DNA of 64,000 nucleotides from Wenzhouxiangella sp. AB-CW3 (GTDB lineage: Bacteria > Pseudomonadota > Gammaproteobacteria > Xanthomonadales > Wenzhouxiangellaceae), in NCBI RefSeq assembly GCF_014725735.1, contig NZ_CP061368.1, positions 2,681,225 through 2,745,224 of the forward strand, in the 5' to 3' direction. Both the position numbers and the translations under genes were made by a program. The notes below the pieces were generated by a model that had not been told where the DNA came from, ran no database searches, and saw only the letters and a program-made list of their open reading frames with translations. Below, piece by piece: positions 48,128 through 52,966 of the stretch (its first letter is position 1; each line of letters opens with the position of its first letter).

Positions 48128-48883
48128 TTGAGCCTGCTTCACAGTCTATTCAGGCAAATGCTCTCTTCGATGCGCGACCTCGCACCGGTCGTGATCGTCT
48201 TCAGCCTTTTCCAGTTGCTGGTCATTCGCCAGCCCTTGCCGCCACATATCGGCGTGGCCGAGTTGATCATTGGCCTCATCAGCGTCCTGGTCGGCCTGAC
48301 CCTGTTCGTCAAGGGACTTGAGGTCGGGCTGTTTCCGGTTGGCGAGAACCTGGCCCATGCCTTTGCCCGCAAGGCCTCGGTGTTCTGGCTGATCCTGTTT
48401 GCTTTCTTCCTGGGATTCGGAACAACCATTGCCGAACCGGCGCTGACCGCCGTGGCGGCCAAAGCGGGGGTGGTCATGTCCGATGCGGCGTTAATTGCCG
48501 GCCATGACGAAGCGCAGCGGCAGTTTGCCATCACCCTGCGCATCGTTGTCGCACTGTCGGTGGGCAGCGCCGTAGTCCTGGGCGTGTTGCGTATCCTCAA
48601 GGACTGGACGCTACACTACCTGATCATTGCCGGTTACGCGCTGGTGCTGGTGCTGACCGCCTTCGCGCCTGAAGAGATCGTCGGCATTGCCTACGATTCC
48701 GGCGGAGTCACGACCTCTACCATCACCGTGCCGCTGGTCGCCGCTCTCGGCGTGGGTCTGGCCACGGCCATCAGGGGACGCAACCCCATGCTCGACGGCT
48801 TCGGCCTGATCGCGTTTGCCTCGGTCATGCCGATCATCTTCGTGCTTTTGTTTGGACTGATCGGTTTCGGGGGTGGCGCATGA
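48128..48883 (+). CDS. DUF1538 membrane protein, subunit A
   Basis: 251 residues with about seven TM helices. Two conserved loops stand out: [19 protein letters not shown] near 97-115 and [22 protein letters not shown] near 180-201. These DUF1538 hallmarks look like re-entrant, ion- or substrate-binding loops. The next gene's product has both loops as well, so the two genes encode homologous halves that are fused in some bacteria. The frame begins at TTG (48128); an ATG at 48158 is an alternative. It overlaps the next gene by 4 bp. Transport is inferred; no substrate is known to me. Confidence 0.85.
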
Positions 48884-49701
48884 ACGAGGCCCTGACCATC
48901 CTGCGCACCACGCTGTTCGACCTGATGCCGATCCTGGCGGTGATCTTCGGCTTCCAGTACCTGGTCATACGCAAGCCGGCTCCCCATTTAAGGCGTGTAC
49001 TGCTTGGCCTTTTCCTGGTGTTCCTGGGCCTGGCGCTGTTCCTGTTCGGCCTGGAAACCGCCCTGTTCCCGCTGGGCGCCGTCATGGCCGAACAACTCAC
49101 CAGCCCCGAGTTTTTGCCCACGCTGGCCGAAGGAATGGAGCGTCACTGGACTCACTATTACTGGGTCTACCTGTTCGCCTTCGCGATTGGTGCCAGCACC
49201 ACCATTGCCGAGCCAGCCCTGATTGCCGTGTCGCTCAAGGCCGGCAAGGTCTCCGGCGGCACCATCGACCCGTTCGTGCTGCGCATTGCGGTCGCTATCG
49301 GCATGGCCTTCGGTATCACTCTGGGCAGCTGGCGCATCATTACCGGAACGCCACTGCATTACATGGTCATGGGCGCCTACGCGCTGGTCATCATCCAGAC
49401 CCTGCGTTCACCAAAATTCATCATCCCGCTGGCCTTCGATTCTGGCGGGGTCACCACCTCGACCATCACCGTGCCGATCATTGCCGCACTGGGTTTGAGC
49501 CTGGCCAGCGCCATACCTGGCCGCAGCCCGATACTGGATGGCTTCGGCATGATTGCCCTGGCCTGCCTGTTCCCGATCATCACGGTGATGGCCTATGCCC
49601 AGATCGCCGAATGGCGTCAGCGCCGAATCAGGGCAAGACAGGAATCGCCGCCGGCACGAACCGGCCACAACCAAGGAGATACGCCATGGGACTCAAACTG
49701 A
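48880..49701 (+). CDS. DUF1538 membrane protein, subunit B
   Basis: 273 residues with about seven TM helices. It repeats the hallmarks of subunit [21 protein letters not shown] near 106-125, [20 protein letters not shown] near 185-204, and [20 protein letters not shown] near the end. A basic tail ([11 protein letters not shown]) faces the cytoplasm by the positive-inside rule. Its ATG overlaps the subunit A stop (ATGA). The last 16 bp overlap the P-II gene, so all three are one translationally linked operon, which suggests the P-II protein gates or senses this membrane complex. Confidence 0.87.
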
Positions 49702-50024
49702 TCGTTGCTTTCGTGGAGCCGGATCGAACCGAGGAGCTGTTGGCCGAAGCGCGCAAGGTCGGCGCCGGCGGTGCGACTGTCATGAGCCATGCCCGAGGCG
49801 AGGGCAGGAACACGGTCAAGGGAGTCTTCGGCCTGGAAATCGCGGCCCAGCGCGATGTGCTCTTGATGCTGGTGGACCAATCCCGTGCCGAACGGGTGCT
49901 CAGGCGATTGGCCGAGGTCGGAGAGTTCGACGACCGTCCGGGCACCGGCATCGCCCTCAAGCTCGATGTTGAAGACGCGCTGGGCGTTCGCGATCAGATG
50001 GCCGATGTGCTCAAGCGCACCTGA
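49686..50024 (+). CDS. P-II family regulatory protein in the DUF1538 operon
   Basis: 112 residues, the standard P-II size and ferredoxin-like pattern: [29 protein letters not shown], then ATVMSHARGEGRN, then the C-terminal ALKLDVEDALGV (quoted in short pieces). The T-loop region, VKGVFGLEIAAQRD, lacks the uridylylated Tyr51 of GlnB/GlnK. The basic ligand-binding motif and the Q-loop are also altered, so it is not a classical nitrogen sensor. AAGGAG seven bases before the ATG marks strong translation. Its place after two DUF1538 subunits suggests it controls them, as GlnK controls AmtB; this is inference. Confidence 0.82.
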   Translation: MGLKLIVAFVEPDRTEELLAEARKVGAGGATVMSHARGEGRNTVKGVFGLEIAAQRDVLLMLVDQSRAERVLRRLAEVGEFDDRPGTGIALKLDVEDALGVRDQMADVLKRT

Positions 50025-50049
50025 TTGCATATCCTGGCTTGTTTTTCGA

Positions 50050-50209
50050 AACCGCAGATGAACGCGGATAAACGCAGATTCACGGGCATACAGGGGCAAT
50101 TCGTGGGGGCATGAGATCCCGGGTAAAACAAGAATCATTGCCCCCATTGCCCATTCTTGATCCATCTGTAAGATCTACAATCTGCGTTAATCCGCGTTCA
50201 TCTGCGGTT
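50050..50209. repeat. 30-bp inverted repeat between the two P-II genes
   Basis: The arms at 50050-50079 and 50180-50209 match at 29 of 30 positions, separated by 100 bp. The arm reads AACCGCAGATGAACGCGGAT and onwards, a type of intergenic repeat I know from many genomes. The spacer also has partly complementary segments, GGGGCAAT near 50095 and TTGCCCCCATTGCCC near 50139, so the whole 160 bp could fold as one long hairpin. It lies between convergent genes, so it may serve as a two-way terminator. Confidence 0.9.
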
Positions 50210-50319
50210 CCAAAGAATCCGCCTGGAAGAGGGCTGAATCATATGAGCAATCAGGTAAACGTACGGATGAGCCGCCGCCTGGTTCGGGTTCGCGATGACC
50301 AGTTGTCGTCACCGGCCTA

Positions 50320-50658
50320 TCAGCCCTGCTCCTGCAGCGCCTTGATGTGATCGCCCAGACCGGTCGCGCGACTGACATCGAGTTCCAACGCCACCCCGGT
50401 GTGCTTGCTCTCGTCGAGCTCGCCGGCCTCGGTGATTGCATCCATCACCGCGGCGGATCGACTGGCTTCGACCAAATACAGCAGGATATTGCGCGCCCCG
50501 AGGTACTCGAGGCCGAAGAAGGTCAGGTGTCGGTGCAGCCCCTGGCCACGGGCCTGGGGAATGATCGTGGCACCGGATGCCCCCGCTGCACGAGCTGCTT
50601 CCATGACGGCCTCGACCTTCTGGTCATCGATCATGGCCATAATCAGTTTGAAGTTCAT
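50320..50658 (-). CDS. Second P-II family protein, opposite the DUF1538 operon
   Basis: 112 residues, the same length as the P-II protein from 49686-50024. It starts MNFKLIMAMIDDQKVEAVMEAARAAGA and includes GASGATIIPQARGQGLHRH, FFGLEYLGARNILLYLVEAS and HTGVALELDVSRATGL (pieces). The two share the pattern K-L-I, A-R-G-x-G, F-G-L-E, G-x-A-L-x-L-D-V, so they are paralogues. T-loop residues differ (HLTFFGLEYLGARN), and there is again no Tyr51. The ATG at 50658 is preferred over upstream in-frame options because it matches the fold. The convergent placement hints at separate control of two partners of one membrane system. Confidence 0.78.
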   Translation of the reverse strand: MNFKLIMAMIDDQKVEAVMEAARAAGASGATIIPQARGQGLHRHLTFFGLEYLGARNILLYLVEASRSAAVMDAITEAGELDESKHTGVALELDVSRATGLGDHIKALQEQG

Positions 50659-50944: not shown

Positions 50945-51919
50945 ATGCGCCAGGTCACTCTACGTTGCGAGAACTGGAATCTCCATTCTCCATTCATCAT
51001 TACCGGCCATGTCTTCACCGTAGCCGAGATCCTGTATGTGGAGATCGCCGATGACAGGCATGTGGGCCGGGGAGAGGCCAGCGGCGTCTATTACCTGGGC
51101 GAGACCGCCCAGAGCATGCTCGAGCAGGCCGAAAGCGTTCGCTCGGCCCTGGAGGGCGGTGCCGGACGGGAAGTGCTGCTGTCGCTTCTGCCGGCGGGCG
51201 GGGCGCGCAATGCGATCGACTGCGCCCTGTGGGATCTGGAGGCTCGCCGTAGCGGCCAGCGCGTGTGGGAACTGGCTGGGATCAGCCCTCGCGCTATCAC
51301 CACATTCCAGACCGTCAGTCTGGACTCGCCTGACCGCATGGCCGCCGCGGCCAGCCGAATTGCCGGAGAGAAGATCAAGGTCAAACTCGACGGCGATCAG
51401 GCACTGGAGCGAATTGCCGCGGTACGCCGTGCCCGTCAGCAGGCCGAGATCATCGTCGACGCGAACCAGGGCTGGACCTTTGAACAACTGCAGACACTGG
51501 CACCGGCATTTCGTGATCTGAGGATCGCCATGATCGAGCAGCCACTGCCCCGCGGCGACGATGAAGTGCTGGAGGACTATATGCCGCCATTGCCCTTGTG
51601 CGCCGATGAGTCCTGCCTGGATCGCTCAGAGTTCGAGGTAGCTGCCAGCCGATACCAGATGATCAACATCAAGCTCGACAAGACGGGCGGGCTGACGGAG
51701 GCCCTGGCGCTGGCCCGACTGGCCAGGGATCACGGCCTGGAACTGATGGTCGGCAACATGGTGGGAACCTCCCTGGCCATGGCGCCGGGCTATGTCGTTG
51801 CCCAGCTGTGCCGATACGCCGATCTGGACGGCCCCCTGTTGCTGGAAAGCGACCGCGAATGTGCCATGTCGTTCGAGAAGGGCCGTGTTTCACCCCCGCA
51901 AAAAGCGCTTTGGGGCTGA
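50945..51919 (+). CDS. dgcA: Enolase-superfamily racemase/epimerase, N-acetyl-D-glutamate racemase DgcA
   Basis: 324 residues of the muconate-lactonizing/Ala-Glu-epimerase branch. Catalytic features are KVKLDGD (K-x-K base), VDANQGW and EQPL with ADES (metal-binding D-E-D), and the second lysine in NIKLDKTGG. The DUF1611 neighbour, 12 bp downstream, makes the DgcN-DgcA pair known to convert D-glutamate through N-acetyl-D-glutamate to N-acetyl-L-glutamate. On its own the gene would be called an L-Ala-D/L-Glu epimerase, the older annotation for the same group. Start ATG at 50945 is five bases after a GGA. Confidence 0.85.
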   Translation: MRQVTLRCENWNLHSPFIITGHVFTVAEILYVEIADDRHVGRGEASGVYYLGETAQSMLEQAESVRSALEGGAGREVLLSLLPAGGARNAIDCALWDLEARRSGQRVWELAGISPRAITTFQTVSLDSPDRMAAAASRIAGEKIKVKLDGDQALERIAAVRRARQQAEIIVDANQGWTFEQLQTLAPAFRDLRIAMIEQPLPRGDDEVLEDYMPPLPLCADESCLDRSEFEVAASRYQMINIKLDKTGGLTEALALARLARDHGLELMVGNMVGTSLAMAPGYVVAQLCRYADLDGPLLLESDRECAMSFEKGRVSPPQKALWG

Positions 51920-51931
51920 TATGCTGTTCTG

Positions 51932-52966
51932 ATGTCCGAGACGACCCGAATCCGACTCAATGCGCCCTACCTGTTGCTGATCGGCACCGAATCCCGACCC
52001 ACTTTTGCCAAGACCGCCATGGGCCTGGTGCAGTGGTGCCCGGACAAGGTGATCGGACAGCTGCGCTTCGAAGGCTGCGAGCTGGATCTGGGTGTGCCCG
52101 ACGTGAGTGTGACCGAAGCGGCCCGGTCCGACTGCGGCAGTCTGGTCGTGGGGGTTGCACCCGTAGGCGGCAAGGTGCCGGACTCGTGGTGGAGCGTGAT
52201 GGAACAGGCCGCTCGCGCCGGCATCGATGTTGTCAGCGGCCTGCATCTGCGCCTGGACGATCATCCAGGTCTGGTCGCCGCCGCCAAGGCCGGCAACGCC
52301 CGTCTGATCGACGTTCGTATACCACCCGCCGATCTCCCCGTAGGCAGCGGCAAGCCGCGCTCGGGTCGACGCATACTAACCGTCGGCGCCGATTGCGCCA
52401 TCGGCAAGAAGTACACGGCCCTGGCGCTCCACCGCGCGCTCGCCCGGGCCGGGGCTGATGCCACCTACCGGGCAACCGGGCAGACCGGCATCATGATTGC
52501 CGGCGAAGGCATCCCCATCGACTCCGTGGTTGCGGATTTCATCTCCGGTGCCGCCGAGGTGCTGTCGCCGGACAATCAACCCGATCACTTCGACATCATC
52601 GAGGGCCAGGGCTCGATTTTTCATCCCGGCTACTCCGGCGTGGCCCTGGGCCTGCTCCATGGTTCGCAGCCCGACGGCTTTGTCGTCTGCCACGATCCCC
52701 TGCGTGAAAGCGTCTCCGGCTGGCCGCATTTCGGCCTGCCGTCGCTCGAGGAGGTGATGGACGCTCATGTGCGCATGGGGCAACGCACCAACGCCCGCAT
52801 CCGGTGTGTCGGCATCTCGGTCAACACTTCCAGCCTGTCGACCGAAGATCGGGCCACCTGCCTGAAGCAGCTTGCACGGCAAACCGGCCTGCCCTGCGTC
52901 GATCCGCTGATCGACGGATGCGATGCCATCGCCCGCCACCTGCTGGACGAATTGACCGGACGATAA
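51932..52966 (+). CDS. dgcN: DUF1611 family D-glutamate N-acetyltransferase DgcN
   Basis: 344 residues with an N-terminal Rossmann-like part and a C-terminal P-loop domain, ILTVGADCAIGKKYTALAL near 148-166 (a GxxxxGKK-type nucleotide or CoA loop). RATGQTGIMIAGEGIPIDSVVADF, DHFDIIEGQGSIFHPGYSGV and VVCHDPLR are typical of DUF1611 proteins. In the DgcN-DgcA pathway it acetylates D-glutamate for use as carbon and nitrogen source, so the pair may recycle D-glutamate from peptidoglycan. It sits immediately after dgcA on the same strand. Confidence 0.85.
   Translation: MSETTRIRLNAPYLLLIGTESRPTFAKTAMGLVQWCPDKVIGQLRFEGCELDLGVPDVSVTEAARSDCGSLVVGVAPVGGKVPDSWWSVMEQAARAGIDVVSGLHLRLDDHPGLVAAAKAGNARLIDVRIPPADLPVGSGKPRSGRRILTVGADCAIGKKYTALALHRALARAGADATYRATGQTGIMIAGEGIPIDSVVADFISGAAEVLSPDNQPDHFDIIEGQGSIFHPGYSGVALGLLHGSQPDGFVVCHDPLRESVSGWPHFGLPSLEEVMDAHVRMGQRTNARIRCVGISVNTSSLSTEDRATCLKQLARQTGLPCVDPLIDGCDAIARHLLDELTGR

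What the first reader, a model, noticed from the sequence alone, without database searches (positions are those of the whole stretch)
48128..50658. DUF1538 two-subunit membrane system paired with two divergent P-II paralogues
Seen: two homologous membrane proteins each carrying TTIAEPAL and [13 protein letters not shown] loops, a 112-residue P-II protein overlapping the second subunit, and a second 112-residue P-II paralogue on the opposite strand across a 30-bp inverted repeat. Known: P-II proteins block or open partners such as AmtB through their T-loop. Inference: this is a P-II-gated transporter or channel for an unknown ion or metabolite, with two sensors that may bind different ligands or form mixed trimers. 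Neither P-II has Tyr51, so control is likely by ligand alone.
Basis: partly seen in the sequence, partly recalled or inferred. Interest (0 to 1): 0.72.

Follow-up and report, generated by a model that had tools for sequence, protein, structure and literature searches.

The report
P-II partners of a sodium/proton antiporter
A salt-pumping protein pair of a known kind is almost always encoded next to its own small P-II sensor protein, here with a second sensor close by, suggesting that bacteria use this sensor family to switch sodium and potassium pumps and not only nitrogen uptake.

Summary
The two DUF1538 proteins resemble UmpA and UmpB, the Na+(Li+,K+)/H+ antiporter of Halomonas zhaodongensis, so the substrate class is not unknown. 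A divergent P-II gene overlaps umpB. The link is near-obligate: 80 of 80 DUF1538-positive genomes searched carry this P-II family, 76 within 1.5 kb on the same strand; 0 of 39 DUF1538-lacking genomes do (14 show only weak, GlnB-level matches). A CBS-pair gene follows in 69 of 80 named loci; the window lacks it. The inverted repeat is a dispersed genomic element. The second P-II (PII2) belongs to its own well-supported clade. PII2-type genes pair with UmpAB in Natronospirillum and adjoin a Kef/CPA2 antiporter, sequence-unrelated, in 9 of 10 genomes of another family. Elsewhere DUF1538 neighbours are double (Clostridia) or apparently triple P-II chains. Both window P-IIs lack Tyr51 and several canonical ligand residues. 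Loop charges suggest that UmpA and UmpB lie in opposite orientations. Best reading: an antiporter modulated by dedicated P-II sensors. A homologous UmpAB works without P-II (literature); binding, ligand and direction of control are inferred. A P-II subgroup beside metal/proton antiporters (PII-NG) is known; I found no paper joining P-II with DUF1538 or UmpAB.

The parts
48128..48883 (+). UmpA-like DUF1538 membrane subunit (251 aa, TTG start)
   Evidence: ORF; Pfam DUF1538 E 2.5e-65; NCBIfam UmpA 393 bits, cut-off 490
48880..49701 (+). UmpB-like DUF1538 membrane subunit (273 aa); its start overlaps the umpA stop (ATGA)
   Evidence: ORF; Pfam DUF1538 E 3.4e-63; NCBIfam UmpB 441 bits, cut-off 500; AlphaFold2 mean pLDDT 91.7
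49686..50024 (+). PII1: P-II-family protein (112 aa), 16-base overlap with umpB; main UmpAB-associated P-II group
   Evidence: ORF (inner frame of 48873-50024); Pfam P-II 35.1 bits, cut-off 25; trees; model mean pLDDT 81.9, residues 40-45 under 50
50320..50658 (-). PII2: second P-II-family protein (112 aa), convergent to PII1; separate clade shared with Marinospirillum, Natronospirillum and a Kef-linked P-II
   Evidence: ORF (inner ATG); Pfam P-II 34.7 bits, cut-off 25; clade SH-aLRT support 100 in two trees
50050..50079 (+). Left arm of a dispersed inverted repeat, lying where the CBS gene is in most relatives; considered and judged not part of the system
   Evidence: 40 genomic copies at up to 3 mismatches, control 0; 62-nt arms 77% complementary, 72 nt apart
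50180..50209 (-). Right arm of the same dispersed inverted repeat; not part of the system

Best explanation
UmpA and UmpB form an antiparallel heterodimeric Na+(Li+,K+)/H+ antiporter. PII1, encoded by an overlapping gene, binds its cytoplasmic face and modulates it, most likely as an inhibitor that lets go when a bound ligand (probably an adenine nucleotide) changes. PII2 is a second sensor with a differently built ligand pocket; it acts on the same antiporter, on the genome's second (fused) DUF1538 protein, or on both. The P-II family concerned serves alkali-cation/proton antiport and not nitrogen. Shown: gene order, co-occurrence, sequence features; and, in the literature, transport by the H. 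zhaodongensis homologue without its P-II. Inferred: binding, ligand, inhibition, topology, and PII2's partner in this genome.
For: Co-occurrence: 80 of 80 DUF1538-positive genomes searched have the P-II family, lowest best hit 49 bits; 0 of 39 DUF1538-lacking genomes, where 14 have matches of at most 25.8 bits and 6 of 6 such loci checked hold the GlnB/GlnK uridylylation motif. Adjacency within 1.5 kb: 76 of 80, all same strand; 75 of 80 named loci, 4 of the other 5 ending at a contig edge. Coupling: umpB-PII gap at most 50 bases in 63 of 74 pairs, overlapping in 26. A DUF1538-DUF1538-PII fusion (L052). Clostridia: fused DUF1538 overlapping a double P-II gene. The own genome repeats the design: fused DUF1538, P-II, CBS pair. 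PII2-type genes adjoin a CPA2 antiporter in 9 of 10 genomes. Mirror-image loop charges of UmpA and UmpB. [quoted passage not shown] coli KNabc in salt (PMC5484666 section 6) and the abstract reports antiport, so P-II is a modulator rather than a required subunit. A machine-learning paper lists DUF1538 in a table of pH-adaptation families (PMC13255231, passage).
Against: No binding, ligand or transport data exist here for any of these P-IIs. K90 and R101 of GlnB are replaced and the stretch around K58 is deleted in both, so nucleotide binding is uncertain, although PII1 keeps Arg at the R38 and R103 columns. Four of 80 genomes have the P-II only on another contig. Window UmpA and UmpB miss the NCBIfam equivalog cut-offs, so the exact substrate may differ. 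Some family P-IIs stand away from DUF1538, beside ETF-QO-like or SH3-domain genes. One relative (L060) lacks a P-II at this locus. Two UmpB loops, L3 and L6, do not fit the charge pattern. PII2-type genes in G942 and G772 have no Kef-like gene in the stretch fetched. The CBS gene is missing in the window.
Confidence: 0.7

Rival explanations
1. The P-II proteins activate, stabilise or help assemble UmpAB rather than inhibit it.
For: Near-obligate operon and translational coupling fit a stoichiometric partner as well as a regulator; a fused form exists (L052).
Against: UmpAB of H. zhaodongensis restores growth of E. coli in salt without its P-II (PMC5484666, section 6); the P-II-transporter pairs in the passages seen of the review PMC10710835 are inhibitory.
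Confidence: 0.2
2. In this branch UmpAB moves something other than Na+ (for example mainly K+ efflux), so the P-II senses another quantity such as potassium or energy state.
For: Window UmpA and UmpB score under the equivalog cut-offs (393 of 490 and 441 of 500 bits); PII2-type genes sit beside Kef-like CPA2 antiporters; an ion-channel gene with TrkA domains lies upstream of umpAB in L201.
Against: Window UmpB is 69-71% identical to two Halomonas-titled proteins (L064, L071), and one Halomonas UmpA also misses the cut-off (443.9 of 490), so the cut-offs are narrow. UmpAB is already reported to exchange K+ (PMC5484666 abstract).
Confidence: 0.25
3. PII2 has no part in UmpAB control here: it is a wandering or decaying paralogue, or works in trans on another antiporter.
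For: It stands alone on the opposite strand; one relative has a PII2 with a large internal deletion (L061) and another has no P-II at this locus (L060); PII2-type genes are linked to CPA2 antiporters in family f256; few genomes have one.
Against: A PII2-type gene is the only family P-II found in the Natronospirillum genome and is divergent to umpAB there; it lies beside umpAB in three Wenzhouxiangella loci (window, L059, L046); the own genome's only PF00999 match is far away.
Confidence: 0.35
4. The association reflects neighbourly inheritance, and the P-II regulates something unrelated, for example nitrogen enzymes.
For: Some family P-IIs occur without DUF1538 next to them.
Against: Co-occurrence and absence across families, a fusion, and recurrence with fused, split, long and clostridial DUF1538 forms. 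Two P-II signatures (patterns recalled) are absent in 83 of 83 main-group rows while the genome's own GlnB has both.
Confidence: 0.08

Closest known systems
UmpAB Na+(Li+,K+)/H+ antiporter of Halomonas zhaodongensis (DUF1538, PF07556; NCBIfam NF041627/NF041628)
   Same: Two homologous DUF1538 subunits (7 predicted TM each in the paper) encoded by overlapping genes; strong hits to both models.
   Different: The window scores under both equivalog cut-offs. The paper's main text has 0 hits for P-II, PII or nitrogen regulat; here a P-II overlaps umpB and a second P-II follows.
SbtA-SbtB (Na+-dependent bicarbonate transporter with PII-like inhibitor)
   Same: P-II-superfamily protein paired with a Na+-coupled secondary transporter; Foldseek lists SbtB, including the SbtA-SbtB complex 7egk, among PII1's matches.
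   Different: Different transporter; SbtA is a trimer (PMC10710835 passage), whereas UmpAB is reported as a heterodimer.
GlnK-AmtB
   Same: Conserved gene pair of a P-II and its transporter; T-loop control is the working model.
   Different: Here the T-loop is about 5 residues shorter, with no Tyr51, K90 or R101, and an FGL-type motif.
PII-NG (P-II subgroup clustered with CzcABC-type metal/proton antiporters)
   Same: A P-II subgroup encoded beside a cation/proton antiporter (PMC7726332 passage citing Sant'Anna 2009); the nearest precedent for the idea.
   Different: Its partner is an RND divalent-metal exporter; here the partner is DUF1538, or CPA2 for PII2-type genes. Sequence relation to PII-NG was not tested.
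Kef/CPA2 antiporters with TrkA_N domain
   Same: Cation/proton antiporter family; in family f256 one adjoins PII2-type genes.
   Different: Different Pfam family from DUF1538; in the window the neighbour is DUF1538 and not CPA2.

Membership tests
DUF1538 (PF07556) | Score over the curated Pfam gathering cut-off | tested here: met
   220.1 and 213.2 bits, cut-off 22.6
UmpA/UmpB equivalogs (NF041627, NF041628) | Score over the NCBIfam equivalog cut-offs (490, 500) | tested here: not met
   393.2 and 441.1 bits. A Halomonas-titled pair scored 443.9 (below) and 513.8 (above), and a Vibrio UmpA 385.6
UmpAB-type two-component antiporter | Na+(Li+,K+)/H+ antiport needing both subunits | not testable with these tools
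   Shown for the H. zhaodongensis homologue (PMC5484666, abstract and sections 5-6)
P-II superfamily (PF00543) | Score over the gathering cut-off and P-II fold | tested here: met
   35.1 and 34.7 bits, cut-off 25; PII1 model: the 50 matches listed have E 2.5e-6 to 3.5e-5 and are P-II or PII-like structures. PII2 was not modelled
Canonical GlnB/GlnK P-II | Uridylylation site Y-[KR]-G-[AS]-[AE]-Y with Tyr51 (pattern recalled) | tested here: not met
   0 of 83 main-group and 0 of 6 PII2 rows; own GlnB 1 of 1
Canonical GlnB/GlnK P-II | C-terminal signature with G-[DY]-G-[KR] (pattern recalled) | tested here: not met
   0 of 83 and 0 of 6; own GlnB 1 of 1
Canonical GlnB/GlnK P-II | Ligand residues R38, Q39, K58, G87, G89, K90, R101, R103 (roles recalled) | tested here: not met
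   PII1 keeps R38, G87, G89, R103; PII2 keeps only G89; K90 and R101 replaced and K58 column gapped in both
PII-NG | Clustering with CzcABC-type metal exporters | tested here: inconclusive
   No such general neighbour stood out in the clustering of 80 loci, but no RND model was run and no PII-NG sequence was compared
P-II superfamily | Homotrimer with ligands in the inter-subunit clefts | not testable with these tools
   Only single chains could be modelled
P-II-regulated transporter | Direct, ligand-dependent binding to the transporter | not testable with these tools
   Genomic association only

The most novel reading that the evidence does not exclude
There is a branch of the P-II superfamily devoted to alkali-cation/proton antiport. 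It controls at least two sequence-unrelated antiporter families (UmpAB/DUF1538 and Kef/CPA2) and has been built as single genes, gene pairs, double-domain and triple-domain chains. In the window one antiparallel UmpAB heterodimer is read by two P-II paralogues with different ligand pockets, which would break the idea that P-II proteins act only on transporters that work as trimers.
Probability: 0.45. Interest if true: 0.75.

Novelty: new variant of a known kind. Interest (0 to 1): 0.58.

Why it matters
P-II proteins are textbook nitrogen and carbon sensors. A dedicated P-II branch on sodium and potassium antiporters would extend them to pH, salt and ion homeostasis, give DUF1538 a regulator, and pose a direct question: how a normally trimeric sensor sits on a two-subunit, opposite-topology transporter. 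The genes are small and a growth and antiport assay in E. coli KNabc exists, so it can be tested soon.

Tried and rejected
Inverted repeat as regulator: rejected, since it is dispersed (40 copies at up to 3 mismatches; by eye 34 of them form 17 facing pairs). Solved relative of DUF1538: none by profile or Foldseek (UmpB best E 0.34). Conserved neighbours beyond umpA-umpB-PII-CBS: none general; the largest cluster occurs in 16 of 80 loci; one cluster of 6 loci is Kef-like by its one scanned member. Second P-II as a rule for ordinary UmpAB loci: rejected. In one search, 66 of 81 rows (window included) have one P-II plus CBS; L061's count of 3 is PII1 plus two fragments of one shortened PII2, and L063 and L068 include a neighbouring fused locus. 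A swap of CBS for PII2: not supported, since L046 and L061 have both (L061's PII2 being shortened) and L060, L071 and L129 lack CBS without having PII2. Common origin of the extra P-II domains in Clostridia, tandem and triple forms: branches too long and columns too few to place. Rows left out of the first tree: the L050 and L051 domains and the shortened L061 PII2; L042, L043 and L045 skipped as copies of L060, L061 and L062. In the second tree L052, own GlnB and the first Vescimonas domain were also left out, and of the long and triple forms only some members were put in. Literature: searches listed no paper that I could see joining P-II with DUF1538, UmpAB or Kef/CPA2; some lists were cut (30 of 37; 15 of 100), the library is open-licence only, and apart from the papers named in the report I saw only listings and abstract starts. 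PMC6131200 and PMC9745158 hold both kinds of words but only in unrelated places (passages).

Full report
OBSERVATION. The four genes are present at the stated coordinates. Pfam gives DUF1538 for both membrane proteins and P-II for both small proteins. NCBIfam names the membrane proteins as UmpA-like and UmpB-like, below the strict equivalog cut-offs. umpA and umpB overlap by ATGA, and umpB and PII1 by 16 bases. The genome is 3.84 Mb in one contig and the window is C1:2681225-2745224. The genus is most likely Wenzhouxiangella: contigs of three same-genus genomes match in length named Wenzhouxiangella MAG contigs (8614, 9975 and 4131 bases).

WHAT THE TRANSPORTER IS. UmpAB of Halomonas zhaodongensis is a DUF1538 pair. 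Co-expressed alone it restores growth of E. coli KNabc in salt (PMC5484666 section 6); the abstract reports Na+(Li+,K+)/H+ antiport and a heterodimer by co-immunoprecipitation; section 5 was also read. A term search of its main text found no P-II or nitrogen-regulator mention. Because UmpAB works without P-II, P-II is a modulator and not a required part (inference). DUF1538 stands in a table of pH-adaptation families in PMC13255231 (passage).

THE P-II LINK IS GENERAL. A scan of genome contigs kept the best 80 of 504 relatives (its pattern list had reached its limit). With a local profile, 75 of 80 loci have a P-II of this family beside the DUF1538 pair; in one of them, L070, it is divergent. 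Four of the other five end at a contig edge (L086, L104, L110, L124); L060 does not, and shows none. In an even draw of 397 genomes of the window's phylum, 88 have DUF1538, the own genome included. Of the other 87, 80 were searched with the P-II profile: 80 of 80 have it, lowest best hit 49 bits. In 76 of 80 it lies within 1.5 kb of a listed DUF1538 match, and every such match is on the same strand (the DUF1538 list was cut and I added for 15 of the 80). The exceptions are G123, G154 and G176 (one family) and G128, where the P-II is on another contig; in G176 the DUF1538 match is itself a fragment. Of the seven genomes left out, six show the P-II beside DUF1538 in their loci; G388 was not looked at. 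As a control, 39 genomes without a DUF1538 match were searched: 25 have no match, 14 have matches of at most 25.8 bits, and the 6 loci checked hold a GlnB/GlnK-type uridylylation motif, so 0 of 39 carry this family. Six of these 39 are under 90% complete. Of 74 named loci with a measured gap, umpB and P-II are at most 50 bases apart in 63 and overlap in 26.

THE MODULE HAS A FOURTH GENE. A gene matching a local CBS-pair profile follows in 69 of 80 loci; Pfam finds two CBS domains in both members scanned. The window and its nearest relative L059 lack it; in the window the place holds a dispersed inverted repeat, with 40 copies at up to 3 mismatches in the genome and 0 for the control pattern. 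One copy lies 24 bases from the match of the genome's canonical glnB, which I take as chance.

THE SECOND P-II. In a tree of 103 rows (own GlnB as outgroup), PII2 groups with five others at SH-aLRT 100: L059, L046, the extra P-II of two Marinospirillum, and the P-II of Natronospirillum operosum. With more rows the clade has nine entries, two being copies of one sequence, again at 100. Both are quick trees on 111 columns, with warnings about few columns and long branches. In Natronospirillum the PII2-type gene is the only family P-II found and lies divergent to umpAB. In 369 even Gammaproteobacteria, 106 have a match at E up to 1e-28 with a PII2 profile, but only the window, G664 and G772 stand above the rest (200.6, 171.0 and 149.1 bits, next 139.1). 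In 251 genomes of G664's order, 10 have a match at E up to 1e-42, all in family f256 and in four genera; of these only G664 is in the tree, the others being PII2-type by score. In 9 of the 10 the next gene is a Kef-like antiporter: PII2 first in four (all genus g434), antiporter first in four, convergent in one. The G664 one has Na_H_Exchanger and TrkA domains and resembles KefC and KefB, under their cut-offs; the other eight are 80-99.9% identical to it. G942 has none in the stretch fetched. In G664 the usual umpAB-P-II-CBS module is elsewhere (L260). In G772, PII2 lies near cydA and a histidine-kinase gene, with no Kef-like gene in 14 kb.

OTHER ARCHITECTURES. The own genome also has a fused DUF1538 protein (508 aa), a P-II and a CBS-pair gene. 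One relative has DUF1538-DUF1538-PII in a single 649-aa frame (L052, the same as L012); its P-II part scores 24.6 bits in Pfam, just under the cut-off of 25. Clostridia: in Vescimonas, Paraclostridium and Peptoclostridium a fused DUF1538 gene overlaps an annotated P-II gene of 222-224 aa. The local profile finds two P-II domains in all three, the first of Vescimonas being weak at 11.4 bits; Pfam counts two stretches in two of them and one in Vescimonas. Acetoanaerobium is unannotated and looks alike by eye. Methylocystis and Chelativorans have a single P-II. A distant long DUF1538 form is followed by two P-II genes in nine genomes (L206, L208, L211, L212; L170-L175, L177; two genomes occur in both lists), the second gene being weak (16-30 bits); Pfam confirms both in L212, the only pair scanned. 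In G028 and G039 one chain (open frames of 434 and 401 aa) next to a long DUF1538 holds three P-II-like stretches (64, 39 and 18 bits; 62, 37 and 16 bits); Pfam finds only the middle one, so the triple chain is likely but not certain. Three Wenzhouxiangella genomes show two tandem P-IIs (L039, L040, L041).

SEQUENCE LOGIC. Against the genome's own GlnB, the main group (83 rows) has a T-loop five residues shorter in the alignment, an FGL-type motif (81 of 83) and no Tyr in residues 37-57 (0 of 83; but 2 of 6 PII2 and 9 of 9 fused-type rows have one there). K90 is Ile, Met or Val and R101 is Gly in 83 of 83, and Gln104 is invariant. R38 is mostly Leu and R103 mostly Ala, yet the window's PII1 keeps Arg at both. 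PII2 rows have His104 (6 of 6) and a variable residue for G87; the fused-type rows have Arg, Thr or Ser at 104. This suggests different ligand pockets (inference; residue roles are recalled). The PII1 model is a P-II fold with a disordered T-loop, the listed matches including TTHA0516, GlnK and SbtB structures.

TOPOLOGY. Mean net loop charges over 81 UmpA and 78 UmpB sequences alternate in opposite phase (UmpA N +1.27, L1 -0.56, L2 +1.75, L3 -2.41, L4 +0.90, L5 -0.72, L6 +1.86, tail +0.02; UmpB N -1.24, L1 +3.60, L2 -2.38, L3 -0.53, L4 -0.32, L5 +1.15, L6 +0.60, tail +1.82). By the positive-inside rule the subunits are antiparallel, UmpB's basic tail is cytosolic, and the P-II fused to the second domain in L052 would lie in the cytosol. 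UmpB L3 and L6 do not fit. The UmpB model (pLDDT 91.7) has helix breaks within both conserved motifs and no significant match among solved structures.

COMPARISON. [quoted passage not shown] PII-NG proteins cluster with CzcABC proton/metal antiporters (PMC7726332, passage), so a P-II beside a cation/proton antiporter has a precedent, with another transporter family and other ions. Cable-bacteria papers mention UmpAB as a salt adaptation (PMC10030654, PMC12093952; passages).

VERDICT. UmpAB is known. Its near-obligate P-II and frequent CBS partners, the separate PII2 clade and the tie of PII2-type genes to CPA2 antiporters are not described in the papers that I could search. Control by P-II is strongly suggested by genomics and untested biochemically.

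Noticed in passing
window 50050-50209: Dispersed inverted-repeat element (30-bp core, 62-nt arms), 40 core copies in the genome at up to 3 mismatches, 34 of them by eye in 17 facing pairs; MITE- or REP-like.
   Followed up: partly
L050:5377-6678 and L051:8615-9817: One polypeptide with three P-II-like stretches beside a long fused DUF1538 gene: possibly a single-chain P-II pseudo-trimer; Pfam sees only the middle stretch.
   Followed up: partly
L223, L225, L226, L227: Clostridial P-II genes of 222-224 aa (a 227-aa frame in L225) overlapping a fused DUF1538 gene; two P-II domains by local profile in the three scanned.
   Followed up: partly
L061:7715-7888: PII2 copy with a large in-frame internal deletion in a Wenzhouxiangella MAG; decay or misassembly.
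   Followed up: no
L197-L202, L205: Family P-IIs not next to DUF1538; neighbours include SH3-domain proteins (L199, L201) and ETF-QO-like genes (L198, L205).
   Followed up: partly
L201:4270-5964 and L203:4701-5975: Channel-like genes beside DUF1538 loci (Ion_trans plus TrkA domains by Pfam in L201; L203 by eye only).
   Followed up: no
L010:3333-8328: Second DUF1538 locus of the own genome: fused DUF1538, P-II and CBS pair, between an enolase-like and a solute-binding-protein-like gene (flanks by eye).
   Followed up: partly
window 50945-52966: Enolase-superfamily (dipeptide-epimerase-like) gene followed by a DUF1611-like gene (by eye and recall), next to PII2; not examined.
   Followed up: no
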